From: Amycolatopsis balhimycina FH 1894
GTDB lineage: Bacteria > Actinomycetota > Actinomycetes > Mycobacteriales > Pseudonocardiaceae
Assembly (NCBI RefSeq): GCF_000384295.1
Contig: NZ_KB913037.1
Coordinates: 5,514,822-5,578,821, forward strand
DNA length: 64,000 nucleotides
Reading direction: 5' to 3'
The notes below the pieces were generated by a model. That model searched no databases. It was not told the DNA's origin and saw nothing but the letters and a program-made list of their open reading frames with translations. The number at the start of each line of letters is the position of its first letter. Position 1 is the stretch's first letter. Made by a program: the position numbers and the translations under genes. This document shows, in pieces, positions 3-43,023 of this stretch.

Positions 3-1160
3 CTGGGTGACGGCTGGATTCACTTCGACGGCCTCCCCGGAATGCTGGTACCGGAACAGGTCGCTTCGGCCGTTTCCACGGCGATGCGCGCACCGGTGTC
101 CGGGCCGGGCGGAGCGTTTCCGGCCTCACAACGTGCGGAAAGCATCGTGACCGCGGCCCGCCGGGCCGTGGCCGACCTGGTCGGGGCCGACCCGGCTGCC
201 GTCGTGCTCGGGCCGAGCGCGCCGGTGATGCTGCGCCGGCTCGTCGACGCGCTCGCCGAGCGCTGGACCATCGGCGACGAGCTCGTCGTGTCGAGGCTCG
301 ACGAGCAGGCCAACCTGGCGCCGTGGCAGCGCGCCGCGAAGCGCGTCGGCGCCGTCGTGCGCTGGGGCGAGATCGACATCGAGACCTGCGAGCTGCCCGC
401 GTGGCAGTACGAGCAGCTCGTGTCGGCGCGCACCAAGGCCGTCGCGGTCACGCTCGCGTCCGGTTCCGTCGGGACCCGGCCGGACGTGCCGACGATCATC
501 GAGTTCGCCAAGCGGGTCGGCGCGCTCGTCGTCGTCGACGCCACCTACGCCGCGCCGTTCCTGCCGCTGGACATCAACGCCCTCGGTGCCGACGTCATGG
601 TCGTGTCCGCGCAGGCCTGGGGCGGTCCCTCGGTGGGCGCCCTGGTCTTCCGCGACCCCGAGCTGATCGAGCGGATCCAGCCGGCGTCGCTCGACCCGAT
701 GGCCCGTGGTGCCGCGCGTCTGGAGCTCGGCCCGCACGCCTACCCGCTGCTGGCCGGGCTGATCGCGTCGATCGACTACCTCGCGGGCCTCGACGACGCC
801 GCCAGCGGCTCGCGGCGTGAACGCCTGGTCACCTCGCTCGGCTCCGCGAAGTCGTACCACGCCGGGCTGCTCGCGCAGCTGTCGACGGAACTGCTGTCGC
901 TGCGCCACATCATGGTCATCGGCAACGCCATGCGCCGCATCCCCGCGCTGGCCTTCGCCGTCGCCGGCAAGAAGGCGCCCGAGGTCGCCGAGTACCTGGC
1001 GACGCAAGGGCTGTGCGCCTTCGCCGATGACGGCACGAGCGGTGTCTTCGCGTCACTGGGTGTCGGAGAAGTGGGCGGCGCCGTGCGGATCGGGCTCGCC
1101 CACTACTCCAACGTCTTCGAGATCAACCAGCTCGTGCGGGTTCTCGACGAACTCCGCTAA
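3..1160 (+). CDS. Class-V aminotransferase/cysteine-desulfurase-like protein, left end cut off, PLP lysine missing
   Basis: The reading frame is open from base 3, so the start lies outside the window; an internal ATG at 42 would give 372 residues. The fold is that of the class-V aminotransferase and NifS/SufS family: the aspartate that stacks on PLP is seen in VVVDATYAAPFLPLD, and the strand that normally carries SxHKxxGPxGxG follows. Here that segment reads VVSAQAWGGPSVGALVF, with Q-A in place of H-K, so the lysine that binds PLP is absent. A desulfurase or transaminase reaction is therefore doubtful and a non-catalytic or PLP-independent role is more likely. It converges on and overlaps by 4 bp the quinone oxidoreductase gene. 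From memory, M. tuberculosis Rv3778c/Rv3777 shows a similar pairing. Confidence 0.75.
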   Translation: MGDGWIHFDGLPGMLVPEQVASAVSTAMRAPVSGPGGAFPASQRAESIVTAARRAVADLVGADPAAVVLGPSAPVMLRRLVDALAERWTIGDELVVSRLDEQANLAPWQRAAKRVGAVVRWGEIDIETCELPAWQYEQLVSARTKAVAVTLASGSVGTRPDVPTIIEFAKRVGALVVVDATYAAPFLPLDINALGADVMVVSAQAWGGPSVGALVFRDPELIERIQPASLDPMARGAARLELGPHAYPLLAGLIASIDYLAGLDDAASGSRRERLVTSLGSAKSYHAGLLAQLSTELLSLRHIMVIGNAMRRIPALAFAVAGKKAPEVAEYLATQGLCAFADDGTSGVFASLGVGEVGGAVRIGLAHYSNVFEINQLVRVLDELR

Positions 1161-2143
1161 GACTTCGCCGCCAGCAGGACCTTGCCGAACACACTGCCCT
1201 CTTCCAGGATCCGGTGCGCGGACGCGGCTTCGGCCATCGGCACGACCTGGCCGACGATCGGCTTGACCGAGCCCTGCTCGACCAGCGGCCACAGGCGCTC
1301 GCGGACGTCGGCGACGATCGCCGCCTTCTGGGCCGGCGGGCGGAACCGCAGGCCCGCGGCGAACACGCTGGCCCGCTTGCCGAGCAGCGTGCCGACGTTC
1401 AGCTCACCCTTGACCCCGCCCTGCATGCCGATGATGACGAGCCGGCCGTCCTGCTGCAGCGCGTCGACGTTGCGGCCCAGGTAGGACGCGCCCATGTTGT
1501 CGAGGATGACGTTCGCGCCGCCGGTCTCCTCGCGGAGCACCTTGACGAAGTCGTCTTCCTTGTAGTTGATCGTGACGTCGGCGCCGAGCTGGCGGCAGCT
1601 CTCGAGCCGGTCGGCCGAGCCCGCGGTGACGGCGACGGTGGCGCCGAGCGCCTTCCCGACCTGGATGGCGTGCGTGCCGATCCCGCCGGCGCCGCCGTGG
1701 ACCAGCAGCACCTCGCCTTCGGCGAGCTTCGCGTGCATCACGACGTTCGCCCACACCGTGCAGGCCACCTCGGGCAGCGCGGCCGCGGTGAGCAGGTCGA
1801 TCTCGGCCGGCACCGGCAGCAGCTGCCCGGCCGGGACAACGGCCTTCTCCGCGTAGCCACCGCCGGAGAGCAGCGCGCAGACTTCGTCGCCGACTTTCCA
1901 GCCTGCAGTGTCTTCCAAGCCCTCGCCGAGTTCGGCGATCGTGCCGGAACACTCCAGGCCGAGGGTTTCGCTGGCTCCGGGCGGCGGCGGGTAGTGGCCC
2001 TGGCGTTGCAGCAGATCCGCACGGTTCACCGCGCTCGCCGCGACGTCCAGCAGCACTTCGCCGGGGCCGGGACGCGGGTCCGCGACTTCCGCCCACTCGA
2101 GAACGTCCGGGTCACCTGGTTCACGGATGGTGATCGCGTACAT
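1157..2143 (-). CDS. NAD(P)H:quinone oxidoreductase, zinc-free MDR family (PIG3/QorA-like)
   Basis: This 328-residue protein belongs to the medium-chain dehydrogenase/reductase superfamily. The N-terminal GroES-like half contains the quinone-reductase signature SAVNRADLLQRQGHYPPPPG (residues 37-56). The Rossmann nucleotide site is VHGGAGGIGTHAIQ near residue 150. The cysteine and histidine ligands for catalytic and structural zinc are missing, as in NADPH quinone reductases rather than alcohol dehydrogenases. It probably reduces quinones or enals with NADPH in the cytoplasm. The start is the ATG at 2143. The gene converges on the preceding aminotransferase-like gene and overlaps its stop codon. 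Confidence 0.9.
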   Translation of the reverse strand: MYAITIREPGDPDVLEWAEVADPRPGPGEVLLDVAASAVNRADLLQRQGHYPPPPGASETLGLECSGTIAELGEGLEDTAGWKVGDEVCALLSGGGYAEKAVVPAGQLLPVPAEIDLLTAAALPEVACTVWANVVMHAKLAEGEVLLVHGGAGGIGTHAIQVGKALGATVAVTAGSADRLESCRQLGADVTINYKEDDFVKVLREETGGANVILDNMGASYLGRNVDALQQDGRLVIIGMQGGVKGELNVGTLLGKRASVFAAGLRFRPPAQKAAIVADVRERLWPLVEQGSVKPIVGQVVPMAEAASAHRILEEGSVFGKVLLAAKS

Positions 2144-2225
2144 GTGTCGACTGTATACCGGTGAGTGAATCTCCCGCCGAATGACGCATTGACGAAGTTC
2201 TCATTCGGAACAAAGGTGAGCAACC

Positions 2226-3758
2226 ATGTCACTCTTCCGCAAGAGATTCCTCCCGCCGGTGGCTCTGGCCGCCGGCGCGACGCTGGTGCTCGGCCTCACC
2301 CCGGCCGCCGCCGCGACGACCGTCCCCGCCCTGGCGAAGCAGCTCGTCAAGAAGGTCGACGTCAACGGTGTCAACCGGCACCTGATCGCCCTCCAGCGCA
2401 TCGCCGACACCAACGGCGGCACCCGGGCGGCGAGCACCGAGGGCCACAAGAAGTCCGCCGAGTACATCGCGACCAAGCTCGAGGCGGCCGGCTTCCAGGT
2501 GACGCGCCAAGAGTTCCCGTTCACCTATTCGCAAACCCTGGCCGAGAAGCTGACCGCGGGCGGCGCGAACGTCCCGGTCATCGCCATGGAGTACACGGTT
2601 TCGACGCCGGTCGGCGGCATCACCGCGCCGCTCTCCGTGGTCGCCGTCGACGCCACCAGCGGCTGCGAGGCCACCGACTACACCGCGGACGTCGCGGGCA
2701 AGATCGCGCTGATCAAGCGCGGCGGCTGCTCGTTCGCGCAGAAGCAGCAGACCGCCGCGGCCGTGGGGGCGGTCGGCGCGATCGTCTACAACAACGCCGA
2801 CGGCGCCCTGAACGGGACACTCGGCGGCCCGGAGAACGCGAAGATCCCGACCGGGGGCGTGACGGCGGCCGCGGGGGCGCAGCTGGCCACGCTCGGCGGG
2901 CAGAACGTGACGCTCGAGCTGCGCGCCTTCCAGGAAGCGCGGACCAGCTACAACGTCATCGCCGAGACCAAGACCGGGCGCAAGGACAACGTCGTGATGC
3001 TCGGGTCGCACCTCGACAGCGTCCCGGCGGGCCCGGGCATCAACGACAACGGCACCGGCTCGGCGACCCTGCTCGAGACCGCGCTGCAGCTGGGGAGCAG
3101 CCCGAAGATCAACAACGGCGTCCGCTTCGGCTTCTGGAGCGCGGAGGAGTTCGGCCTGATCGGCTCGACCCACTACGTCGACCAGCTGACCTTCGAGCAG
3201 CAGCTCGACATCGCGCTGTACCTGAACTTCGACATGATCGGCTCGCCCAACGCCGGGTACTTCGCCTACGACGGCGACAACTCCGACGGTGTCGGCGCGG
3301 GCGCCGGCCCCTACGGCTCGGCGCAGATCGAGAAGACCTTCGTCGACTTCATGCAGGCCGCGCGGGGCGTGTCCCTCGAGGGCACCGACTTCACCGGGCG
3401 CTCGGACTACGGCGAGTTCATCGCCGTCGGCATCCCGGCCGGCGGCCTGGACACCGGCGCCGAGGTGCTGAAGACCCCGGCGCAGGCGGCGAAGTGGGGC
3501 GGCACGGCCGGCGTCGCGTTCGACCCGTGCTACCACCAGGCCTGTGACAACCTGGGCAACATCGACCGGGTCGCGCTGGACCGCAACGCGGACGGCGTCG
3601 CCTGGGCCCTCGGCGTCTACGCGACGAGTACCGAGAGCGTCAACGGCGTCCAGCCCGGCAAGGCCAAGGCGGCCAAGCAGAAGGCCGCCGAGCGCGGTGC
3701 GCAGCGGAACTTCTCCGCCCGCGCCGTGGCCGGTGACCCGCACGCGCTGACTGCCTGA
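2226..3758 (+). CDS. Secreted M28-family zinc aminopeptidase with inserted PA domain
   Basis: This 510-residue protein opens with a signal peptide (MSLFRKRF, a hydrophobic stretch, then PAAAATT), so it is exported. A PA domain lies around residues 140-235 and the M28 peptidase domain follows. The co-catalytic zinc site is visible in order: HLDSVPAGPGINDNGTGSA (His and bridging Asp), SAEEFGLIGS (catalytic Glu and Glu ligand), NFDMIGS (Asp ligand) and CYHQACDN (His ligand). The layout is that of Streptomyces griseus aminopeptidase and yeast aminopeptidase Y, enzymes that release hydrophobic N-terminal residues. A GGTGAG-type ribosome site precedes the ATG. A short Lys/Ala-rich tail follows the catalytic domain. 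A hairpin terminator lies 10 bp after the stop. Confidence 0.93.
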   Translation: MSLFRKRFLPPVALAAGATLVLGLTPAAAATTVPALAKQLVKKVDVNGVNRHLIALQRIADTNGGTRAASTEGHKKSAEYIATKLEAAGFQVTRQEFPFTYSQTLAEKLTAGGANVPVIAMEYTVSTPVGGITAPLSVVAVDATSGCEATDYTADVAGKIALIKRGGCSFAQKQQTAAAVGAVGAIVYNNADGALNGTLGGPENAKIPTGGVTAAAGAQLATLGGQNVTLELRAFQEARTSYNVIAETKTGRKDNVVMLGSHLDSVPAGPGINDNGTGSATLLETALQLGSSPKINNGVRFGFWSAEEFGLIGSTHYVDQLTFEQQLDIALYLNFDMIGSPNAGYFAYDGDNSDGVGAGAGPYGSAQIEKTFVDFMQAARGVSLEGTDFTGRSDYGEFIAVGIPAGGLDTGAEVLKTPAQAAKWGGTAGVAFDPCYHQACDNLGNIDRVALDRNADGVAWALGVYATSTESVNGVQPGKAKAAKQKAAERGAQRNFSARAVAGDPHALTA

Positions 3759-3767
3759 TGACAGACC

Positions 3768-3803
3768 GAAGGGGCCGGCCCGCTGCCGGGACGGCCCCTT
3801 CGT
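3768..3803 (+). terminator. Hairpin terminator after the M28 peptidase
   Basis: The outer arms gaaggggcc and ggccccttc pair around a GC-rich loop directly between the convergent peptidase and metallopeptidase genes. It could serve both strands. No T-run follows, which is usual in this GC-rich DNA. Confidence 0.65.
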
Positions 3804-3810
3804 CATGCGT

Positions 3811-4737
3811 CTAGCCCAGGTTGTTCGTGCCGAAGGTGTCGCAGCGGGGCGGTTCGCCGGTCTGGAAGCCGGTGGTGAACCACTTCTTGCGCTGCGCGGA
3901 CGTGCCGTGGGTGAACTTCGAGCGGTCGACCTGGCCGCCGCCGAGCTTCTCCTGGATGTAGTCGTCGCCGATGCGGGACGCGGTGTCCAGCGCGGAGGCG
4001 ATGTCGTCCTGGGTGACGTCGGTGATCAGCGGCTTGCCGCTCTCGGTCGGCGTCGTCGAGGCGTGGTTGGCCCAGACGCCGGCGTAGCAGTCGGCCTGCA
4101 GCTCGAGGCGCACCGAACCGGACGTCGGACCGGTGCCGGTGCCCTTCTTCGACGTGCCGAGGAGGTTCTGCACGTGGTGGCCGTACTCATGGGCGAGCAC
4201 GTACGCCTCGGTGAAGAGACCGCCCTGCGCGCCGAAGCGGGTCTTCAGCTCGTCGAAGAAGGAGAGGTCGATGTAGACGTCGGAGTCGGCCGGGCAGTAG
4301 AACGGGCCGGTGTCGGAGGTGGCGCTGCCGCAGCCGGTGCGCACGCCACCGTTGAAGAACTTGGTCGGCGCCTTCTGGTAGGTCGTGCCGGAGCGCGCGA
4401 ACTGCTGCGTCCAGTAGTCCTGGACGGAGTTGACGATCGCGACGATGGCGCAGTCGTGGTTCTTGTTGGCGTCCGCGCCGGTCTTGCACTCACTGGCGAG
4501 CTTGGAGTTGTCGACCTGCTGACCGGACCCGACGCTGCCGAGCCCGCCGCTCAGGCCGCTCCCGCCCGGCACGCTGACCCCGCCGAGCTGGGAGAGGACG
4601 AAGTAGATGATCAGCCCGACGACGCCGAGTCCACCGCCGCCGAGCGCCACGCGGCCGCCGATCCCGCCGCCACCACCGCTTCCGCGCAGGTCCTGGACCT
4701 CGGAGGCGTCCAGGCCGGCGTCGTCGTCGAATCTCAC
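3811..4737 (-). CDS. Membrane-anchored neutral zinc metallopeptidase (YpfJ family)
   Basis: The 308-residue product has a short acidic N-terminus, a glycine-rich stretch, one membrane segment (LGVVGLIIYFVLSQLGG, about residues 37-55) and an extracellular domain. That domain carries the zincin motif HEYGHHVQNLLG around residue 188, followed by ELQADCYAGVWANH with the third-ligand glutamate. This is the signature of the putative neutral zinc metallopeptidase family (PF04228), whose physiological substrates are poorly known. Four well-spaced cysteines suggest disulphides outside the cell. Translation starts at GTG 4737. The gene converges on the M28 aminopeptidase. Confidence 0.9.
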   Translation of the reverse strand: MRFDDDAGLDASEVQDLRGSGGGGGIGGRVALGGGGLGVVGLIIYFVLSQLGGVSVPGGSGLSGGLGSVGSGQQVDNSKLASECKTGADANKNHDCAIVAIVNSVQDYWTQQFARSGTTYQKAPTKFFNGGVRTGCGSATSDTGPFYCPADSDVYIDLSFFDELKTRFGAQGGLFTEAYVLAHEYGHHVQNLLGTSKKGTGTGPTSGSVRLELQADCYAGVWANHASTTPTESGKPLITDVTQDDIASALDTASRIGDDYIQEKLGGGQVDRSKFTHGTSAQRKKWFTTGFQTGEPPRCDTFGTNNLG

Positions 4738-5261
4738 CCGGGAATCGTAACGAGCCTGGGTGCGGCCGTCGCGCTGACGGGCGCACCCAGGCTTGTACCG
4801 AGGTATGTCTTTGCTGAGCGGCTGGCCGCTTCCGGGGCCGGCGTTCAGGCGCTGTCGTCACGGCTTCCGAGGCCGTGACCGGATCCAGGCCCGACCGACG
4901 CCGTATGCGTGAACGCATGGAAACCCGCTCTGATGCTGTTCGCAATCACGACCGAATCGGTAGATTTCCGTGCCGGTCGTGGGGACGCAGCTGGCGGTCA
5001 ACCGCGAGAATCACCCGTCACACAACCACCTGACCTCTCCTGGCGTGGAGCCGGGCCGGCACGTCGCCGTCGTCGCGCCGTTTACCCTGGCCGACCGTCC
5101 GCCACAAGCAGAATGCGCCTTTCCCGGCCGAGTCTCAACCTTTTCGTAACCCCACCTTCGGGCGATGTTGCGACGGTGTTTTCACCGGCACCCGGATCGG
5201 ACTCGGACCGCGCGGTCCCTTGATCAACGTTCTACGCTGCCTTATGACCGAGGAGCGACCT
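4738..5261. other. Intergenic region with one hairpin; no gene seen
   Basis: The 524 bp between two divergently read genes contain no convincing coding frame; the longest frames have no family resemblance, ribosome site or plausible start. A 12-bp-arm inverted repeat lies at 4753-4793. The rest should hold the promoters of the metallopeptidase and MarR genes, but no clear boxes were recognised. Confidence 0.5.
4753..4793 (-). other. Leader hairpin upstream of the zinc metallopeptidase
   Basis: Arms agcctgggtgcg and cgcacccaggct match perfectly over 12 bp around a 17-nt loop. The hairpin begins 16 bp before the GTG of the metallopeptidase and would lie in its mRNA leader. Attenuation, mRNA stabilisation or a protein site are all possible. 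Confidence 0.4.
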
Positions 5262-5756
5262 GTGCGGTGGTTGAACGAAGCCGAGATGGCGGCGTGGCGC
5301 TCCTACATCGTGGCGACCCTCCTGCTGCGGCAGCGGCTGCACCGCGAGCTGTCCGACCGCCACGAAGTGTCGCTGACCGATTACGAAGTGCTCGTCTGCT
5401 TGGAAAGCTCGCCCGGCCACCGGATGCGGATGTCGGAGCTGGCGGTCTACATGGGATCGACGAAGAGCAAGCTTTCGCACCAGGTCGGCCGGCTGGAGGC
5501 GGCGGGCCTGGTCCGCCGGGCCCGCGACTCCGACGACAAGCGCGGGGTGATCACGGAGCTGACCGCCGACGGGCAGACGCTGCTGACGACGGCGGCGCCG
5601 ACCCACGTGGAAGGCGTGCGCGAGCACCTCATCGATCTGTTGAGCCCCGAGGAGCAGGCGACGATCGCCGCGGCGTTCGAGCGCGTGCTGGACCACCTGT
5701 CGGAGGCCGAAAAGCTGAACCCGGGCGCGGCCGCGCCCGGGTTCTCAGAGCGGTAG
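5262..5756 (+). CDS. MarR-family transcriptional regulator
   Basis: This winged-helix regulator has 164 residues when started at GTG 5262. That start was chosen because AGGAG at 5251-5255 sits 6 nt before it and because MRWLNEAEMAAWRSYI is a typical beginning for this subfamily; an ATG at 5244 is the alternative. The DNA-binding helices lie around MSELAVYMGSTKSKLSHQVGRL, followed by the wing RARDSDDKRGVITELT with the conserved D-x-R. MarR proteins bind palindromes as dimers and usually answer small phenolic ligands or oxidants. The final codons contain a 28-bp palindrome, and the TAG stop lies inside the tRNA-Ser gene on the other strand. Confidence 0.88.
   Translation: MRWLNEAEMAAWRSYIVATLLLRQRLHRELSDRHEVSLTDYEVLVCLESSPGHRMRMSELAVYMGSTKSKLSHQVGRLEAAGLVRRARDSDDKRGVITELTADGQTLLTTAAPTHVEGVREHLIDLLSPEEQATIAAAFERVLDHLSEAEKLNPGAAAPGFSER
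5717..5744 (-). terminator. Perfect 28-bp palindrome: likely terminator of tRNA-Ser, inside the MarR gene
   Basis: The two 14-nt arms are fully complementary and centred between 5730 and 5731. On the minus strand the palindrome starts 6 nt after the tRNA 3' end and is followed by CAGCTTTT, so it fits an intrinsic terminator for the tRNA. On the plus strand it encodes the final residues of the MarR protein and could also end that transcript. Confidence 0.6.
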
Positions 5757-5837
5757 CGGTGGGATTCGAACCCACGGAGAGGTTGCCCCCTCGCATGTTT
5801 TCAAGACATGTTCCTTCGGCCGCTCGGACACGCTACC
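5751..5837 (-). tRNA. tRNA-Ser (anticodon UGA)
   Basis: Read on the minus strand, the acceptor arms GGTAGCG and CGCTACC pair over 7 bp with discriminator G. The anticodon loop is CTTGAAA with anticodon TGA, there is the long variable arm of a class-II tRNA, and the T arm contains GGTTCGAATCC. CCA is not encoded. Its 3' end overlaps the last bases of the MarR gene by 6 nt. Confidence 0.97.
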
Positions 5838-5901
5838 TCGCTCCACGAGGGTAGCCGACGGTCCCGGGCAACCCGGGGCGTGCCTCCGGCGTGCTCACCA
5901 C

Positions 5902-6381
5902 ATGAAGACGCGGTGGGATCCGGACGGCCCCGGATGGCAGCCGGACGCCCCGGGCGCGCCGGTGACGCCGTTCTCGATGGCTTGCCTGGCGATCGCGCTG
6001 GTGTCCTTCGTCGGCCTGATGTTCCTCGGGGTCACCCTCCGGGACCGGGCCGGCTCGGTGGTGGCTCCGGCGACCGTGGAGCGGGTGCTCGACCTGGACC
6101 GGGTCGTCGCGCGGGTGGACGGACCCGCCGGCCGGTCGATGGACGTGCGGACCCCTACGAGCTACGACCGGCACACCAGGATCCGGACCGGTCGCGGTTA
6201 CCTCCGGGGCAGCCGCATCGAGGTGCGCTACTGGCCCGGCAAGTCCGAGGACGCGACCGACACCGCCGGCGAAGTCCGGCTGCCCGGCAACTGGATCTTC
6301 GCGGTCGCGGGCGGCGGGCTGCTGCTCGGGATCGCCGGCCTGCTGGTGCCGACCTGGCCGCTCAAGCCCAGGTCAAAGTGA
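5902..6381 (+). CDS. DUF3592-like membrane protein
   Basis: The 159-residue protein has two predicted membrane segments (about residues 22-44 and 131-151) flanking a soluble loop of about 85 residues. The loop is rich in beta-strand pattern (VERVLDLDRVVARVDG, then IEVRYWPGKSEDA). This two-helix plus extracytoplasmic-loop layout, with a YWPG-type turn, resembles actinobacterial DUF3592 proteins of unknown function. It begins at ATG 5902 soon after the tRNA-Ser gene on the other strand and stands alone. Confidence 0.6.
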   Translation: MKTRWDPDGPGWQPDAPGAPVTPFSMACLAIALVSFVGLMFLGVTLRDRAGSVVAPATVERVLDLDRVVARVDGPAGRSMDVRTPTSYDRHTRIRTGRGYLRGSRIEVRYWPGKSEDATDTAGEVRLPGNWIFAVAGGGLLLGIAGLLVPTWPLKPRSK

Positions 6382-6474
6382 ATGCCGCGCCCTGTCCGCC
6401 CAGGTGATCACCCTATCGGGACTGGGAAAACTCCCCGCCGGGATTTACCCTCCTGCTCGGCGAGAGGGGCGGCG

Positions 6475-6645
6475 ATGACCGCGAAGATCGAGGGTTTCCA
6501 CCACGTCAAGTTCCCCGTGCGCGACCTGGCGCGCAGCCGCGAGTGGTACGAGCGCGCGCTGGGGCTCGAGGTCACTCACGAGTTCCCGGACGACGACGGC
6601 GTCGACCACACCGGCGAGCGGGGCTACGCGCGGCCCGTGCGCTGA
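6475..6645 (+). pseudogene. Truncated glyoxalase/VOC-domain gene
   Basis: The 56-residue frame begins IEGFHHVKFPVRDLARSREW, a textbook start of a vicinal-oxygen-chelate domain that includes the first metal-ligand histidine. It then stops after the first beta-alpha-beta module (YERALGLEVTHEFPDDDGV). VOC proteins normally have 115-140 residues. The last residues, GERGYARPVR, look like the usual C-terminus, so an internal deletion is the simplest explanation. A GAGAGGGG ribosome site before ATG 6475 is still present. A functional half-domain that pairs with another protein is possible but unlikely. Confidence 0.6.
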
Positions 6646-6646
6646 C

Positions 6647-6928
6647 TCACGGCTGTTGCAGGGCTTTCGCGGCGATCCGTGCCTGCACCTCGGGGCGCCG
6701 CAGCGGTGGCACGGTCGCCGGGGGCTGACGGCGTTCGGGCAGCTGCTCCAGCAGCCGGGTGGTGATCTCGGCGATTTCGGCCACCGCGGCCTCGAACGGC
6801 TCGCGCGTGGCGTCCGAAAGCGACTGGACGCCGGTCACCTTGCGGACGTACTGGCGGGCCGCGGCCTCGATCTCCTCGCCCGTCGCGGCCGGCTGGAGCC
6901 CCCGGAGGGTGGTGATGTTTCGGCACAT
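6647..6928 (-). CDS. DUF2277 family protein
   Basis: The 93-residue protein starts MCRNITTLRGLQP and continues with EEIEAAARQYVRKVTGV, the hallmark of the DUF2277 family, whose members begin MCR-x-I-x-x-L. The first 60 residues are the conserved helical domain; the rest is a Pro/Arg-rich tail. The function is unknown. A TACCCT box lies 7 nt before ATG 6928, which fits a leaderless transcript. The stop lies 1 bp from that of the VOC remnant. Confidence 0.85.
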   Translation of the reverse strand: MCRNITTLRGLQPAATGEEIEAAARQYVRKVTGVQSLSDATREPFEAAVAEIAEITTRLLEQLPERRQPPATVPPLRRPEVQARIAAKALQQP

Positions 6929-7029
6929 GCCGCCCAGGGTACGACTCTCCGGACCCATCGATCACACGGTCGGGTAGGCCCGGCCCCACCTCGTTGACGC
7001 CCGTACCCGCGCTGGGCAATGTCGGGTAA

Positions 7030-7971
7030 GTGCCTCTCAGACCGCGTCCCTTCCGCTCCGCCCGCCCCGGACCCGTGATCGCCGAAGAAGAAACGCCGGA
7101 CACCCCGATCCCGGAACAGGCCTGGCCGCGCGTGCGGGCCGACGAACTGGTCACCCTCGTGGCACACGTCTTCGCCGCCCACGGCCTCCCCGAAGCGCGG
7201 GCCCGCATGGCGGCCGAGGCGCTCTGCCACGGCGACCTGACCGGCTCGCCGGAAACCGGCGTCGCCGACCTGACCCGCGTCCACCTGCCGCTGCTGAAGG
7301 ACGGGCTCGTCGTGCCGCACGCCGAGCCGCTGATGATCGCCGACCGCGGCGCCGCCGCGTTGATCGACTACCGCCGCGGGCCCGGGCTCTGGGCCGTGGG
7401 CGACGCGATGGACCGGGCGGTGACCCGGGCCGGCCGCTTCGGCGTCGGGCTCGTGTCGATGCGGGGCGCCGGGCCGTTCGGGCGGGCCGGGCACCACGCC
7501 GCGCGCGCCCTGCCGCACGCGATGATCGGGCTGGTGCTCGCCGCGGGCGGCGAACCCGGCCAGCCGCTGAACCCGCTGGGCATGGCCGCCCCGGGCGGCG
7601 CGTACCCCGAGTTCGTCTTCGACCTGGACCGGCCGGGCTCGGAAGCCGCCGGGCTGACGCTGCTGGTCGAAGTCCTCGCCGGGGTGCTTTCCGGCGTCGC
7701 CGACCACGAACACGACACCGGCCTGCTGGTGCTGGCGATCGCACCGACGACGCTGCGCAGCGCCGACGGCTTCTACCGCGCCGCGAGCGCGCTCTTCGGC
7801 AGCATGCTCGGCTGGGACGGCAGCACGCCGATCCGCTACCCCGGCTGCCGCGAGGCCCAGCACCTGGAGCAGTGCCGGGCCCTCGGCGTGCCACTGGCCG
7901 GGCCGGTGCGCCGTGAGCTGGACGCGCTCGCCGCGTCGATCGGCCTCCCACCACTGACCAGCGTCGGCTAG
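7030..7971 (+). CDS. Ldh2/YbiC-family (malate/L-sulfolactate dehydrogenase type) homologue lacking catalytic motif
   Basis: The 313-residue protein aligns in outline with NAD(P)-dependent Ldh2-family oxidoreductases: an N-terminal helical part (VRADELVTLVAHVFAAHGLPEARARMAAEAL), then a long central domain with NPLGMAAPGG. Two signature segments have decayed. The usual DLRGHDSHGVxRL reads GDLTGSPETGVADL, so the catalytic His is missing, and the NSNHFG segment reads RGAGPFG. The protein is also shorter than the usual 330-350 residues. It may bind a nucleotide or dicarboxylate without the classical reaction. GTG 7030 was taken as start; GTG 7075 is an alternative. Confidence 0.65.
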   Translation: MPLRPRPFRSARPGPVIAEEETPDTPIPEQAWPRVRADELVTLVAHVFAAHGLPEARARMAAEALCHGDLTGSPETGVADLTRVHLPLLKDGLVVPHAEPLMIADRGAAALIDYRRGPGLWAVGDAMDRAVTRAGRFGVGLVSMRGAGPFGRAGHHAARALPHAMIGLVLAAGGEPGQPLNPLGMAAPGGAYPEFVFDLDRPGSEAAGLTLLVEVLAGVLSGVADHEHDTGLLVLAIAPTTLRSADGFYRAASALFGSMLGWDGSTPIRYPGCREAQHLEQCRALGVPLAGPVRRELDALAASIGLPPLTSVG

Positions 7972-8192
7972 TGGACCAGGATGACCTTGCCGCGGTCGGG
8001 GCCGACCGCCACGACGTCGCCGTCGGTCAGCTGGCGGCCGCGGCGGGTCTCCACCTCGCCGTTGACCGTGACCTCCTCGGCGTCGATCAGGTCTTTGGCG
8101 TGGGAGCCGTCCTCGGCGAGGCCGGCCAGCTTGAGGAACTGGCCGAGCCGGATCGGCTCGCCGGTGATGGGTACGTCGACGGGGTCGCTCAT
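7968..8192 (-). CDS. S4-domain RNA-binding protein (YbcJ/RlbA-like)
   Basis: The 74-residue protein is almost entirely one S4 domain: IRLGQFLKLAGLAEDGSHAK, DLIDAEEVTVNGEVETRRGR and DGDVVAV. S4 domains bind structured RNA, and stand-alone copies of this size are linked to ribosome or rRNA metabolism, though the target here is unknown. It starts at ATG 8192 and overlaps the Ldh2-like gene tail to tail by 4 bp. Confidence 0.88.
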   Translation of the reverse strand: MSDPVDVPITGEPIRLGQFLKLAGLAEDGSHAKDLIDAEEVTVNGEVETRRGRQLTDGDVVAVGPDRGKVILVH

Positions 8193-37263: not shown

Positions 37264-37977
37264 ATGCCTGGTTTCGATACCGGTCGCGATTTGTCCCGTG
37301 GGCCGGGTGAAACGGCGAATGGGGACGTGCACCTGCCCTTCCTGCACCGGCTCCCGCCGCCACTCCGGCGTGCCCTGGAACGCGTGGGCAGTGACCAGAA
37401 GTTCGCCGCCGGGGCCGACCTGATGCGAGCCGGCCACGCGACGAACTGGATCGGCGTCATCACCCGCGGGGTCGTCCGGGTCTGCGGGCACGACATCGCT
37501 TCGCAGCGGGTCATCGCGCACCGCCGCGACGGCGACCTGATCGGCGAGCTCGCCGCTTTCGGCCTGCAGCGGCGGTCCGCCACCGTGACCGCCGTGACGC
37601 CCGTGAGCGCACTGATCCTGCACCCGGCGCAGCTCGACCAGCTCATGAGCCGGTTCCCCGCGTTCCTCACCTTCGTGATCGGTGTGGTCGCCGAGCGGAT
37701 GGTCGAGTCCGACCGCTACCGGATCGAGAGCGACACCGCGCCGGTGGTCAAGGTCGCCAGGGCGCTCGTCGGCGCGGCGCGCGAAAACGCTGCCGGCGCC
37801 GCGACCGTCCACATCGTGTCCCAAGAGGACTTCGGCTCGATCATCGGCACGTCCCGCAAGACCGTCGGCCGGGTGCTGGCGGACCTCCGCCGGAAGGAGC
37901 TGATCAGCACCCGCCGGGGTGTCGTCCAGCTCCACGACGTCCCGAAGCTCCGGGAGCTCGCTCGGCTGGATCACTAA
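37264..37977 (+). CDS. Crp/Fnr-family transcriptional regulator
   Basis: The 237-residue protein has an N-terminal cyclic-nucleotide-binding beta-roll and a C-terminal winged helix. The phosphate-binding cassette is intact: GDLIGELAAFGLQRRSATVTA matches GEL-A-x5-R-x-A-x-V. The recognition helix is SRKTVGRVLADLRRKEL; the position that is Glu in E. coli CRP (RETVGR) is Lys here, so the DNA site should differ from TGTGA-N6-TCACA. GGAGG precedes ATG 37264. It lies 101 bp before the motif-bearing membrane protein and the cyclase-homology gene, on the same strand, which suggests a nucleotide-signalling unit. Confidence 0.92.
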   Translation: MPGFDTGRDLSRGPGETANGDVHLPFLHRLPPPLRRALERVGSDQKFAAGADLMRAGHATNWIGVITRGVVRVCGHDIASQRVIAHRRDGDLIGELAAFGLQRRSATVTAVTPVSALILHPAQLDQLMSRFPAFLTFVIGVVAERMVESDRYRIESDTAPVVKVARALVGAARENAAGAATVHIVSQEDFGSIIGTSRKTVGRVLADLRRKELISTRRGVVQLHDVPKLRELARLDH

Positions 37978-38078: not shown

Positions 38079-38732
38079 GTGGACCAGTACCGAACGGAGC
38101 AGGTGGAGGACGACGAGCCCCCGGTGGGCGTACGCCTCGACGCCGGGGGCAACCAGACTGTTTCGAACTCCCAGCTCGCGGGCCGCGACATCACCAACGA
38201 CCACAGCACCACGCACAACGACAATTCACGGCGGATGCGGATCGGCTTGGGCGGCCTGGTCCTGGTCCTGCTGTTCGGCGGGGGCGTCTTCGCCTACAAC
38301 GCGCTCACCGGACCCGACGGAGCCATGTACGAGAAGGGGCTCGCCGGCGCGCAGCACACCGCCGAGCAGCTCCGGCAGGCGGAGATCGACCGCGATTCGG
38401 CGAACTGGTGCCTGCTCGCGTCGTCGAACGACTCGAAGACCTGCCACACCATGATGGGCCTGGCCTTCGCCTCCGGGAACTCGCTGCGCGCCAAGCTGAC
38501 GGACGTCCGGCTCGGCACCGCGACCGGCGACGGCAACACCGCGTCGATCCCGATCTCGGCCGGTGGCTCGCAGCTCGGCATCGTGCCGATGCGGTGGGAC
38601 GGGAAGCGGTGGGAACTGAACCCCGCCGCCTACGCGCTGATGCTGAACAACGGCGGCATGGCGATGTCCGCGCTCGAAACCCAGCATGGCTGCGGCGCGC
38701 TCGGCGGCTTCACGATCGGCTGCAAGAAGTGA
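38079..38732 (+). CDS. Single-pass membrane protein with N-terminal homotypic motif GGNQTVSNSQLAGRDIT
   Basis: Not a recognised family. The 217-residue protein (GTG 38079, AAGGAG 5 nt upstream) has a cytoplasmic N-terminus of about 50 residues. Residues 23-39 read GGNQTVSNSQLAGRDIT, followed by an Asn/His/Thr-rich stretch. One membrane helix (about residues 56-75) follows, then an outer domain of about 140 residues with four cysteines (NWCLLAS, DSKTCHTMM, HGCGALGGFTIGCKK) suited to disulphides. The motif returns at the C-terminus of the next gene, which overlaps this one by 4 bp (GTGA). An outside sensor that passes a signal to the cyclase-like partner through like-with-like motif contact is a reasonable inference. 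Confidence 0.75.
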   Translation: MDQYRTEQVEDDEPPVGVRLDAGGNQTVSNSQLAGRDITNDHSTTHNDNSRRMRIGLGGLVLVLLFGGGVFAYNALTGPDGAMYEKGLAGAQHTAEQLRQAEIDRDSANWCLLASSNDSKTCHTMMGLAFASGNSLRAKLTDVRLGTATGDGNTASIPISAGGSQLGIVPMRWDGKRWELNPAAYALMLNNGGMAMSALETQHGCGALGGFTIGCKK

Positions 38733-39439
38733 CCGCCGGCCAGTACCCCCTGCCCGCGACGCTGCTGGTCGCCGACCTGCGCGGGTTCGGGTCGCTGACC
38801 AATCCCGAGCAGCTGGCGGCCCGGTCCGCGCTCTACTCGCGGCTCGCCGTCTCCTTCGACGAAGGCGGCGTGCCGTGGGACGGGTGCGCGCACGAGGACC
38901 GGGGTGACGGCGTGCTCGTCGTCGTCCCGCCGGAGGTGCCGAAGCCCGTCCTGCTCGGGCCCGTGCTCGACCGGCTCGTCGACGCCCGCCGTTCCTGGCC
39001 GCGGCCCGTGCGGATCGCCGTGCACGCCGGCGATCTCCACCACGACGGGCTCGGGTTCGTCGGGAGCGACGTCAACCACGTCTTCCGGCTCGTCGAGGCG
39101 ACGCCGCTGCGGGAGGCGCTCACCACGTCCGGGGCTCCGGCCGCCGTCCTGATCTCCGACGAGCTCTACCGCGGGACCGCCCGGCACGGCTACGGGCCGG
39201 GGCCGGCTCGCGGCTACTTCCCGGTGCCCGTCGCGGAGAAGGAAACCCGGGTGACGGCGTGGCTCACCATCCCCGGCGCCGACGCCGCCGCCGAGCGGAT
39301 CGCCGAGCGGGCGCGGGCACCGCGGCGCCCGGCGCGGCCGGCCGGAGGCGTGGCGCTTTCGGCCGGCGGCGACCAGCACGTCACGAACTCGCTGCTGGCG
39401 GGGCGCTCGGTCACCGGCGCCCGCCGCCGTCGGCACTGA
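38729..39439 (+). CDS. Nucleotide-cyclase-homology protein with C-terminal homotypic motif
   Basis: The 236-residue soluble protein starts at GTG 38729, overlapping the preceding stop. Residues 10-185 resemble a class-III cyclase domain: first metal Asp in LLVADLRGFGS, second Asp in EDRGDGVLVVVP, and the Asn/Arg pair in GSDVNHVFRLVEA, so the catalytic residues appear present. The purine-selecting Lys before the second Asp is not obvious (CAHEDRGD). The C-terminus (about 212-229) is AGGDQHVTNSLLAGRSVT plus a basic tail, the same motif as in the upstream membrane protein. It may make a cyclic nucleotide sensed by the adjacent Crp-type regulator. Confidence 0.75.
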   Translation: MTAGQYPLPATLLVADLRGFGSLTNPEQLAARSALYSRLAVSFDEGGVPWDGCAHEDRGDGVLVVVPPEVPKPVLLGPVLDRLVDARRSWPRPVRIAVHAGDLHHDGLGFVGSDVNHVFRLVEATPLREALTTSGAPAAVLISDELYRGTARHGYGPGPARGYFPVPVAEKETRVTAWLTIPGADAAAERIAERARAPRRPARPAGGVALSAGGDQHVTNSLLAGRSVTGARRRRH

Positions 39440-39466: not shown

Positions 39467-39808
39467 ATGTCCACGACCTACCGCGGATCTCTCGCCCTGC
39501 GCATCCTTTCCGGTGTCCTCGCCGTCCTCCTGGCCCTCGCCGGCCTGGTGACGCGGGTGGTGACGAACACCGGCCTGCGCGTCTGCAACACCGTGATCGG
39601 CCAGATCGGCACCGAGCTCACGCATTCGACCCTGTGCGCCAAGGCCGAAACCTGGCACACCGTCGGCACCGTGGCGATGTGGGGCGGTGTCGCGCTCCTG
39701 GTGGGCACGCTGTTCTACGCCTACGTCCGGCCCCGGTCTTCCGCGAAGCCGGGCGGCGTCCCGCGTCAGGTGCGCCCCGGGCCCGACAAGGTGCTGCCCG
39801 GCTCCTGA
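39467..39808 (+). CDS. Small two-helix membrane protein of the Crp/cyclase cassette
   Basis: The 113-residue protein has two membrane helices (about residues 10-30 and 66-88) enclosing an outer loop with two cysteines (LRVCNTV and STLCAK), and a basic, proline-rich cytoplasmic tail. No family was recognised. It begins at ATG 39467 with AGAAAGG upstream, 27 bp after the cyclase-homology gene, and is followed by a strong terminator, so it is the last gene of this unit. Its shape (small membrane protein beside a nucleotide-signalling enzyme) would suit a sensor or an effector. Confidence 0.65.
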   Translation: MSTTYRGSLALRILSGVLAVLLALAGLVTRVVTNTGLRVCNTVIGQIGTELTHSTLCAKAETWHTVGTVAMWGGVALLVGTLFYAYVRPRSSAKPGGVPRQVRPGPDKVLPGS

Positions 39809-40057: not shown

Positions 40058-41673
<1,616 letters not shown>

Positions 41674-41677
<4 letters not shown>

Positions 41678-43023
41678 GGCGCGGGTGGCTGCCCGCACTC
41701 GGGCTGGCGGCCGCGGCCGCCACGATCGGCGCGATGCTCGTGATCGCCCCGGCCAGCGCGGCCGGCGGGGTCTCGGCGACCTTCAGCAAGGGCTCCGACT
41801 GGGGCACCGGCTACGAGGGCAAGTACACGATCGCCAACGGCTCGGGTTCGACGTTGCCCAGTTGGACGGTCGAATTCGATCTGCCGAGCGGCGCGAAGAT
41901 CTCGTCGCTGTGGGACGGCAGCTACACGGCGTCCGGTCAGCACGTCACCGTCAAGAACACGTGGAACGGCAACGTCGCCAACGGCGGTAGCGCGAACTTC
42001 GGGTTCAACGTGGCGTACTCCGGTTCGTACGTCGCGCCGTCGAACTGCAAGCTCAACGGTGGGTCGTGTGCGGCCGGGGGGACACCTCCGACCACGACCA
42101 CGCCGCCTGTGACGACGACGCCGCCGACCACGACGACACCGCCTCCGGCGGGTGGCCGCGGTGCGCCGTACCTGTACCTGGGCTGGGGCAACCCGCCGAA
42201 CCCGCAGACGGTGATGAACGCGACCGGGATCAAGTGGTTCACCATGGCGTTCGTCAACGCCTCAGGTGGCTGCAACCCGGCGTGGGACAGCAGCCGTCCG
42301 CTGTCGGGCAGCGCGGACGCGAACGCGATCGCGCAGATCAAGGCGGCGGGTGGCCAGGTCATCCCGTCGTTCGGCGGCTGGAGCGGCACCAAGCTCGGCC
42401 CGGCCTGCTCGACGTCCGCCGCGCTCGCCGGTGCCTACCAGCAGGTGATCAACGCGTACGGGCTCAAGGCGATCGACATCGACATCGAGAACTCCGACGA
42501 GTTCGAGAACGAGGCCGTGCAGGACCGCATCCTGGGCGCGCTGAAGATCGTCAAGCAGAACAACCCGGGTATCCAGACGATCCTGACGTTCGGCACGTCG
42601 ACGACCGGCCCGAACTACTACGGCAACCGGCTCATCGACCAGTCGAAGGCGCTGGGTGCCAACGTGGACATCTACACGATCATGCCGTTCGACTTCGGCG
42701 GCGGCGCGGACATGTACGCGAGCACGGTGAGCGCCGCGAACGGCCTGCGGGACAAGCTGAAATCGACGTTCGGGTGGAGCGACGCCACGGCGTACGGCCA
42801 CCTGGGCATCTCGGGCATGAACGGCCTGTCCGACCAGCAGGAGCTGACGAGCTTGCCGGCCTGGACCCAGATCACGAACTGGGCCAAGACGAACAAGCTC
42901 GCCCGCCTGGCGTTCTGGTCGGTCAACCGCGACCGCGGCTGCCCCGGCGGCGGCGTGCAGTCGACCTGCAGTGGCATCGCGCAGAACGACTGGGACTTCA
43001 CAAAGGTGACAGCAGGCTTCTGA
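41674..43023 (+). CDS. Second secreted chitinase: CBM2 plus short GH18 domain
   Basis: The 449-residue protein has a signal peptide, a CBM2 almost identical to that of the preceding chitinase, a short Thr/Pro linker and a GH18 domain of about 290 residues. The catalytic segment is LKAIDIDIENSDEF (about residue 265), which keeps the D-x-D-x-E core. The domain lacks the large insertion of the neighbour and resembles endo-acting short GH18 chitinases (KWFTMAFVNASGGCNPAW, FGGWSGTKLG). The two enzymes would complement each other in chitin breakdown. ATG 41674 overlaps the stop of the first gene, so they are co-translated. Confidence 0.93.
41758..42069 (+). repeat. CBM2-coding duplicate, copy 2
   Basis: This is the gap-free counterpart of 40142-40453 in the second chitinase. 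Identical runs of about 50 bp include silent positions, pointing to recent duplication or gene conversion. Confidence 0.85.

What the first reader, a model, noticed from the sequence alone, without database searches (positions are those of the whole stretch)
38079..39439. Adjacent membrane protein and cyclase-homology protein share a homotypic motif, one at the N-terminus, one at the C-terminus
The membrane protein has GGNQTVSNSQLAGRDIT at residues 23-39 and the overlapping next gene ends in GGDQHVTNSLLAGRSVT. Both motifs are on the cytoplasmic side. In known bacterial amyloid-signalling (BASS) and effector-associated systems, a receptor carries the motif at its N-terminus and the neighbouring effector at its C-terminus, and contact between like motifs passes the signal. 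Here the receptor would be a small Cys-rich membrane protein and the effector a class-III cyclase-like enzyme. I know of no described system with this composition. The motif similarity is seen directly; the signalling role is inference.
Basis: partly seen in the sequence, partly recalled or inferred. Interest (0 to 1): 0.82.

Follow-up and report, generated by a model that had tools for sequence, protein, structure and literature searches.

The report
Receptor-cyclase pair sharing a matching motif
Two overlapping actinobacterial genes, a one-pass membrane protein and a likely cyclic-nucleotide-making enzyme, carry the same short motif on facing ends, and related gene pairs in other bacteria carry differing but matched motifs, which suggests a way of switching on a second messenger by contact between like motifs.

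Summary
Observation confirmed. Membrane protein A (38079-38732) has GVRLDAGGNQTVSNSQLAGRDI before its one membrane helix; cyclase B (38729-39439, 4-bp overlap) has GVALSAGGDQHVTNSLLAGRSV near its C-terminus. No shuffle of 2000 reaches the A x B score. In the 10.9-Mb own genome the only tail match that B finds is A. A profile of B tails alone, run on 1177 genes of held loci, hits 22 B, 11 A and no other at E<=0.1. The pair recurs in Amycolatopsis, Actinocrispum, Streptomyces and Streptantibioticus, with a CRP-type regulator beside it in 13 of 14 rows. Motifs match more within than between loci: 11 membrane-receptor pairs p 2.5e-4; 35 other cyclase/neighbour pairs p 5e-5; ten controls not significant. 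Fused cyclase-motif-TM proteins exist. B has a class III cyclase fold with metal and arginine residues kept. Best reading: an outside signal clusters A, like motifs gather and dimerise B, cNMP is made, CRP responds. Amyloid nature, nucleotide and signal are untested. A new variant of BASS-like motif signalling.

The parts
37327..37977 (+). CRP/FNR-type regulator (cNMP-binding domain plus Crp-type HTH); ORF open from TTG 36976, likely start about 37327
   Evidence: Pfam cNMP_binding and HTH_Crp_2; aligns with E. coli CRP over the GEL...RSA cassette; a CRP-type gene is next to the pair in 13 of 14 located rows
38079..38732 (+). Gene A: N-terminal motif, one TM helix (res. 55-73), Cys-containing domain with NTF2-like fold (res. 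85-217), predicted outside
38145..38195 (+). Motif in A, GGNQTVSNSQLAGRDIT (res. 23-39); similarity extends from res. 17
38729..39439 (+). Gene B: class III nucleotidyl cyclase domain plus low-confidence tail (res. 201-236) with C-terminal motif; GTG start overlaps the stop of A
39365..39415 (+). Motif in B, GGDQHVTNSLLAGRSVT (res. 213-229)
39467..39808 (+). Gene C: small protein with two TM helices and two Cys between them; possible accessory part, 27 bp downstream
   Evidence: kept in A. vastitatis (L027); only weak similarity to a small 2-TM protein of L048

Best explanation
A and B form a two-gene, membrane-sited second-messenger switch. A senses something outside the membrane through its NTF2-like domain and gathers in the membrane. 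Its cytoplasmic beta-type motif binds and co-assembles with the like motif in the tail of B. Class III cyclases form their active site at a dimer interface (recalled knowledge), so gathering B turns it on. The cyclic nucleotide made is read by the neighbouring CRP-type regulator, which changes transcription. Shown: the motifs, the overlapping genes, recurrence, locus-specific matching over the whole set, a cyclase fold and conserved catalytic residues. Inferred: membrane sensing, motif contact, proximity activation, the CRP as reader. An ordered amyloid-like co-polymer is the likeliest physical form of the contact, but that step is the least certain.
For: Recurring cassette with CRP next door. 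Reciprocal and only tail match in the own genome. B-only motif profile finds A N-termini and no other gene type among 1177 at E<=0.1, and 17 of 20 A-family proteins at E<0.01. Within-locus matching beats between-locus matching: membrane set n=11 p 2.5e-4, other set n=35 p 5e-5 (floor); ten controls p 0.069-0.9; Streptomycetaceae alone n=11 p 0.003. Other cyclases of the family pair the same way with large proteins: Actinomadura L081 has a 1441-aa NB-ARC/TPR protein with YFHGPVNVGGNIVIGGSAA near its N-terminus, overlapping a cyclase with tail HFHGQVHVSGDLVVGTKAA. Fusions cyclase-motif-TM-outer domain join both functions in one protein (P0010, P0012, L187, L190). Class III cyclase fold; D16, D60, R95, R120 invariant in 30 of 30. 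CRP genes lie within two genes of 32 of 58 cyclases of 210-330 aa against 3 of 62 longer ones (Fisher p 7e-10).
Against: Within the four pairs of the window's own group matching is not locus-specific (p 0.29). Only 3 of 11 membrane pairs have their own partner ranked first, 6 of 11 in the top three, and L029, L031, L033 rank 7th to 9th; 17 of 35 in the other set do not rank first. Asn116 is kept in 26 of 30 (67 of 157 over all loci), so some relatives may be inactive. AlphaFold gives the motif regions low confidence, which says nothing either way. No amyloid predictor or assay was available. L037 has no recognised CRP neighbour. Full-length A was found in only 3 of 390 family genomes.
Confidence: 0.6

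Rival explanations
1. The motif is a non-amyloid beta-solenoid or strand-swap assembly element that holds A and B in a constant complex; the switch is then allosteric (the membrane protein moves the cyclase), not recruitment by polymerisation.
For: Fused forms keep a motif between cyclase and TM helix, as a linker would. Several A-family N-termini show extra Gly-Asp repeats (P0055, P0064, P0070), as solenoids do.
Against: Separate genes keep both copies, and pairs with quite different motif sequences still match, as expected for self-recognition between like strands. In BASS systems the same N-/C-terminal layout goes with amyloid motifs (PMC7889193, passages).
Confidence: 0.27
2. A is the effector, not the receptor: B makes a nucleotide or senses something, and A damages the membrane or stops growth, as in Pycsar and in BASS/Bell pairs.
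For: A cyclase next to a TM protein recalls Pycsar. The CRP-type neighbour hits PADLOC's PycTIR (E 3e-13) and PycC (E 1.5e-8) models through its cNMP-binding domain. A patchy spread (3 of 390; 1 of 199) is usual for defence genes.
Against: A has no cNMP-binding domain (0 Pfam hits; one PADLOC hit at E 0.024 to another family). Its conserved part is an NTF2-like domain predicted outside. B has no PADLOC hit. The cNMP-binding neighbour also carries a Crp-type HTH. Flanking genes beyond these four were not scanned for defence.
Confidence: 0.1
3. The likeness is a by-product: Gly/Asp-rich composition, or a recent duplication or gene split, with no joint function.
For: Both segments are Gly-rich; A and B could come from a fused ancestor; the shuffled-tail control of the other set is near significance (p 0.069).
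Against: Shuffled tails of the same composition lose nearly all of the effect (28.9 against 49.1). Gene order A-B is the reverse of the order in the fusions (cyclase before TM), so a simple split does not give it. Matching is kept across diverged loci.
Confidence: 0.04

Closest known systems
BASS (bacterial amyloid signalling sequences) of Bell/NLR gene pairs (PMC7889193, PMC8086366, PMC12261475: passages seen; defining paper not held)
   Same: Adjacent or overlapping genes; like motif at the C-terminus of the effector and the N-terminus of the receptor; actinobacteria; several unrelated motif families.
   Different: Effectors named in the passages are Bell, CHAT and TIR and receptors are NLRs; here the effector is a class III cyclase and the receptor a single-pass membrane protein. 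The word cyclase has 0 occurrences in these three papers and in PMC9815663. Fit to the ten BASS profiles could not be tested.
cNMP cyclases in VMAP/vWA and EAD conflict systems (PMC7159879, PMC8195603: passages seen)
   Same: Cyclases of this fold coupled to NTPase switches, sometimes with CRP-like regulators; relative P0037 of B carries EAD2.
   Different: Coupling in the passages is by EADs, bDLD3 or direct fusion; no short matched motif and no A-like membrane partner appears in them; 'amyloid' has 0 occurrences in PMC7159879.
Pycsar (PycC with PycTM or PycTIR; PMC11224242: passages seen)
   Same: Class III-fold cyclase next to a membrane protein and a cNMP-binding protein.
   Different: In Pycsar the receptor of the nucleotide is the effector itself; here the cNMP-binding domain sits in a protein with a Crp-type HTH and the membrane protein has none.
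Fungal NLR amyloid signalosomes (PMC9815663: passages seen; NWD2/HET-S details recalled)
   Same: Receptor N-terminal and effector C-terminal like motifs.
   Different: Effectors there are HeLo-like, PNP_UDP and similar domains, not cyclases (0 occurrences of the word).

Membership tests
Class III nucleotidyl cyclase | Cyclase fold | tested here: met
   AF2 model pLDDT 87.6; Foldseek best Cya2 2w01 E 9.7e-9; Ma1120 TM-score 0.74 by target, 0.53 by query. Pfam itself gives no cyclase hit
Class III nucleotidyl cyclase | Two metal Asp and transition-state Arg | tested here: met
   D16, D60, R120 in 30 of 30; roles assigned by my alignment to known cyclases
Class III nucleotidyl cyclase | Ribose Asn | tested here: inconclusive
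   N116 in B; 26 of 30 close relatives; 67 of 157 overall
Guanylyl-type substrate set | Glu and Gly at the two base sites, aromatic before Arg | tested here: inconclusive
   E56, G109, F119 in 30 of 30, in line with CYG12 (Glu) and the Ma1120 EGY mutant; substrate untested
BASS-type amyloid signalling pair | Adjacent or overlapping genes | tested here: met
   4-bp overlap
BASS-type amyloid signalling pair | Like motif at effector C-terminus and receptor N-terminus | tested here: met
BASS-type amyloid signalling pair | Receptor is an NLR | tested here: not met
   A has no Pfam hit at E<=10; relative L081 does pair with a NB-ARC/TPR protein
BASS-type amyloid signalling pair | Effector is Bell, CHAT or TIR | tested here: not met
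   effector has a cyclase fold
BASS-type amyloid signalling pair | Match to one of the ten BASS profiles | not testable with these tools
   profiles not held
BASS-type amyloid signalling pair | Motif forms amyloid | not testable with these tools
   no assay or predictor
Pycsar | PycC-type cyclase | tested here: not met
   B has no PADLOC match; only the CRP-type neighbour touches a PycC model, through its cNMP domain
Pycsar | Effector with cNMP-binding domain joined to TM or TIR | tested here: not met
   A has none; the cNMP domain is in a protein with Crp-type HTH
EAD-coupled conflict system | EAD shared by the two genes | tested here: not met
   no EAD hit in A or B; EAD2 in relative P0037
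CRP/FNR regulator (neighbour) | cNMP-binding domain, phosphate cassette and HTH | tested here: met
   ligand untested

The most novel reading that the evidence does not exclude
There is a broad, undescribed class of actinobacterial signalling cassettes in which a class III cyclase with a C-terminal homotypic beta (amyloid-like) motif is recruited by a partner with the matching N-terminal motif, either a NB-ARC/STAND-type NTPase or, as in the window, a single-pass membrane receptor, and reports through a linked CRP-type transcription factor. It would join amyloid-type signalling to cyclic-nucleotide control of transcription and extend it to signals from outside the cell.
Probability: 0.55. Interest if true: 0.87.

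Novelty: new variant of a known kind. Interest (0 to 1): 0.77.

Why it matters
Known bacterial amyloid-type motif pairs are thought to trigger death effectors. Here like motifs would turn on a second-messenger enzyme linked to a transcription factor and, in this variant, to a membrane receptor. It also offers a testable answer to how stand-alone actinobacterial class III cyclases are regulated: by matched-motif recruitment of an enzyme that must dimerise to work.

Tried and rejected

In the other set some first-ranked matches are probably not motif pairs: L134 aligns in what looks like a helical, EAD-like region, L086 and L128 score only 40-41, L111 aligns mostly in Pro/Gly-rich sequence; by eye 14 of the 18 are clear or likely motif pairs. 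L094's visible match is with the second gene downstream, not the one tested; L186 looked matched by eye, but its counterpart L114 ranked 20 of 35; L119 (counterpart of L183) ranked 8; L159, L166, L175, L141 and L112 did not match.

Dropped before counts: 35 of 94 stand-alone cyclases as near-identical tails; 13 of the remaining 48 non-membrane ones, without a same-strand, non-CRP neighbour of at least 250 aa within 400 bp. The window's own pair is represented in the permutation tests by its 97%-identical relative L027. One search kept the best 80 of 168 relatives; searches scored only the 7999 and 7995 candidates sharing most words. In one search, three genes with CRP and cyclase in one protein count as having no CRP neighbour unless another lies near.

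Literature: all 10 searches used. I saw no title or abstract start about a cyclase/amyloid-motif pair in the listings shown, which are capped; most subscription papers and all preprints of the library's second part are not held. PMC2447327 (survey of actinobacterial cyclases) was looked into, but only its abstract and references seem to be held.

Full report
Observation. The similarity spans 22 residues without gaps (A 17-38, B 207-228), and the A x B score of 79 is not reached in 2000 shuffles. In the own genome, B finds 12 places at E<=10; apart from itself ten match its cyclase domain and one, E 0.027, is A's N-terminus. An A-family profile finds there only A and B's tail at E<=0.01.

Source. 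A same-genus genome (G162) has a contig of the same length (243,378) as the Amycolatopsis vastitatis contig of L027, whose flanking genes match the window's, so the window is probably Amycolatopsis.

Conservation. A has four full-length relatives in a single-sequence search of 5.8 billion proteins, all four with the motif; a profile search gives 21 proteins, the named ones from Streptomyces, Actinocrispum and Lentzea. B has 48 hits, one of them itself. In the alignment of the next 29 the C-terminal motif is recognisable throughout, in two of them before a TM helix; the last 18 gave no match to a rough motif expression, which also misses some true ones. A profile made only from the 30 B tails, run on 1177 genes called in held loci, hits at i-Evalue<=0.1 22 B genes, 11 A genes and no other; some are repeats of one locus; at <=1 three other genes appear. 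On 20 A-family proteins the same profile hits 17 at E<0.01; P0067 lacks its N-terminus, P0057 hits weakly (0.19), P0054 not at the cut-off of 10, although both have a Gly/Asp-rich stretch there.

Layout. A scan of one genome for each of 84,980 species with the B alignment gave 168 relatives, of which 80 were kept. Fourteen of these rows, in twelve species, have an A-family gene directly upstream of B; in 13 of the 14 a CRP-type gene flanks the pair, co-directional in Amycolatopsis and Actinocrispum, divergent in Streptomyces and Streptantibioticus. Downstream, several Streptomyces loci carry a small lipoprotein-like protein; the window carries a small 2-TM protein. A was found full length in 3 of 390 family genomes (17 with any match at E<=0.01) and in 1 of 199 Streptomyces-group genomes; both searches rest on a loose first look and may miss members.

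Wider family. Of 128 non-redundant cyclase genes well inside their loci, 58 are 210-330 aa long; 32 of these have a CRP gene within two genes, against 2 of 36 (331-599 aa), 1 of 26 (600 aa or more) and 2 of 8 (under 210 aa). Many of the 210-330 aa ones have a tail motif of their own and an adjacent large downstream gene whose N-terminus matches it. Examples: L181 tail HHGISGGTFHGDVTIGGD, partner HHGISGGHFTGSVHLGS; L184 RARKVVGGDEINY / VAGKVVGGDEITY; L067 TISGDDSQNAFGNTVGGD / TISGDETQNAFGNTVSRD; L123 GGASHRADGHGIVNAPGRDQ / GGASHRATDGGTVNAAGRDQ; L171 and L172. L081's partner, upstream, is a clear NB-ARC/TPR protein. Of eight partners scanned, four have only sub-threshold nSTAND3 matches (L181, L197, L067, L182) and four no such match, and L043's partner has no Pfam hit, so STAND-like is a tentative label.

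Matching test. I scored each B tail (75 aa) against the N-terminus (130 aa plus possible upstream extension) of every partner and permuted partners. Membrane set, n=11: own 56.6, other 44.4, own partner first in 3 and top three in 6, p 3e-4 and 2.5e-4 in two runs. Other set, n=35: own 49.1, other 29.1, first in 18, p 5e-5, the floor of 20,000 permutations. Controls with other parts of B, other parts of the partner, and shuffled tails: p 0.27-0.79 in the membrane set, 0.069-0.9 in the other set. Within Streptomycetaceae p 0.003 (n=11); within the four pairs of the window's group p 0.29, so there matching is not shown to be locus-specific.

Fusions. L187's outer part was found by the A profile (E 3.8e-9); L190 has a long outer domain that looks propeller-like by eye. 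This links the functions of A and B independently of the matching test. The order is the reverse of the gene order A-B.

Enzyme. Pfam gives no cyclase hit for B, but the family profile matches solved class III cyclases weakly (3et6 E 4e-4, 5d0g 1.5e-3) and the AlphaFold model matches many of them. D16, E56, D60, R95, G109, F119 and R120 are invariant in 30 of 30; N116 in 26. By my reading of the alignments, Glu at the first base site lines up with the guanylyl cyclase CYG12 and Glu-Gly-aromatic with the Ma1120 KDA-to-EGY mutant, which suggests, but does not show, GTP as substrate.

Mechanism and rivals. The layout is that of BASS pairs (PMC7889193). Dimerisation is reported to activate isolated adenylate and guanylate cyclases (PMC11224242 discussion passage). 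I therefore favour recruitment-driven dimerisation, at 0.6, with amyloid as the likeliest but unproven form of the contact. A constant solenoid-type complex is the main rival.

Known or new. cNMP cyclases in conflict systems with EADs, and a CRP-like neighbour in some, are described (PMC7159879, PMC8195603; passages). BASS effectors named in the passages seen are Bell, CHAT and TIR. I found no report of a cyclase as a matched-motif effector in the ten searches listed under Tried and rejected. I file this as a new variant of a known kind.

Noticed in passing
L081 (Actinomadura barringtoniae) 619-5678: NB-ARC/TPR protein overlapping a cyclase whose tail repeats the motif near the protein's N-terminus: a direct NLR counterpart of the window pair.
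   Followed up: yes
L096, L099, L100, L105: CRP-type regulator and cyclase appear as one 432-474 aa protein, which supports a CRP-cyclase functional link.
   Followed up: no
L181, L182, L184, L197, L200, downstream of the large partner: A further gene with a shared look by eye (VF.TP.G...YEVD) follows cyclase and partner in several loci; the one scanned (L181) has no Pfam hit above threshold. It may be a third component.
   Followed up: partly
L041, L045, L068 and other genes of 600 aa or more: Cyclase domain at the N-terminus of long proteins whose next stretch (FVGRE..L) looks by eye like the start of a P-loop NTPase; 26 of 128 non-redundant genes are 600 aa or longer.
   Followed up: no
window 40058-43023: Two tandem secreted proteins, chitinase-like by eye, share an almost identical N-terminal region (score 731 between neighbours).
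   Followed up: no
L094 (Actinomadura kijaniata) 4995-8162: Neighbouring genes (a 296-aa and a 147-aa membrane protein and a reversed 224-aa one) carry SSAH- or AGRD-type motifs next to a cyclase ending in SSAYVRVDGDSNEINTAGGDMYR: possibly several partners for one motif.
   Followed up: partly
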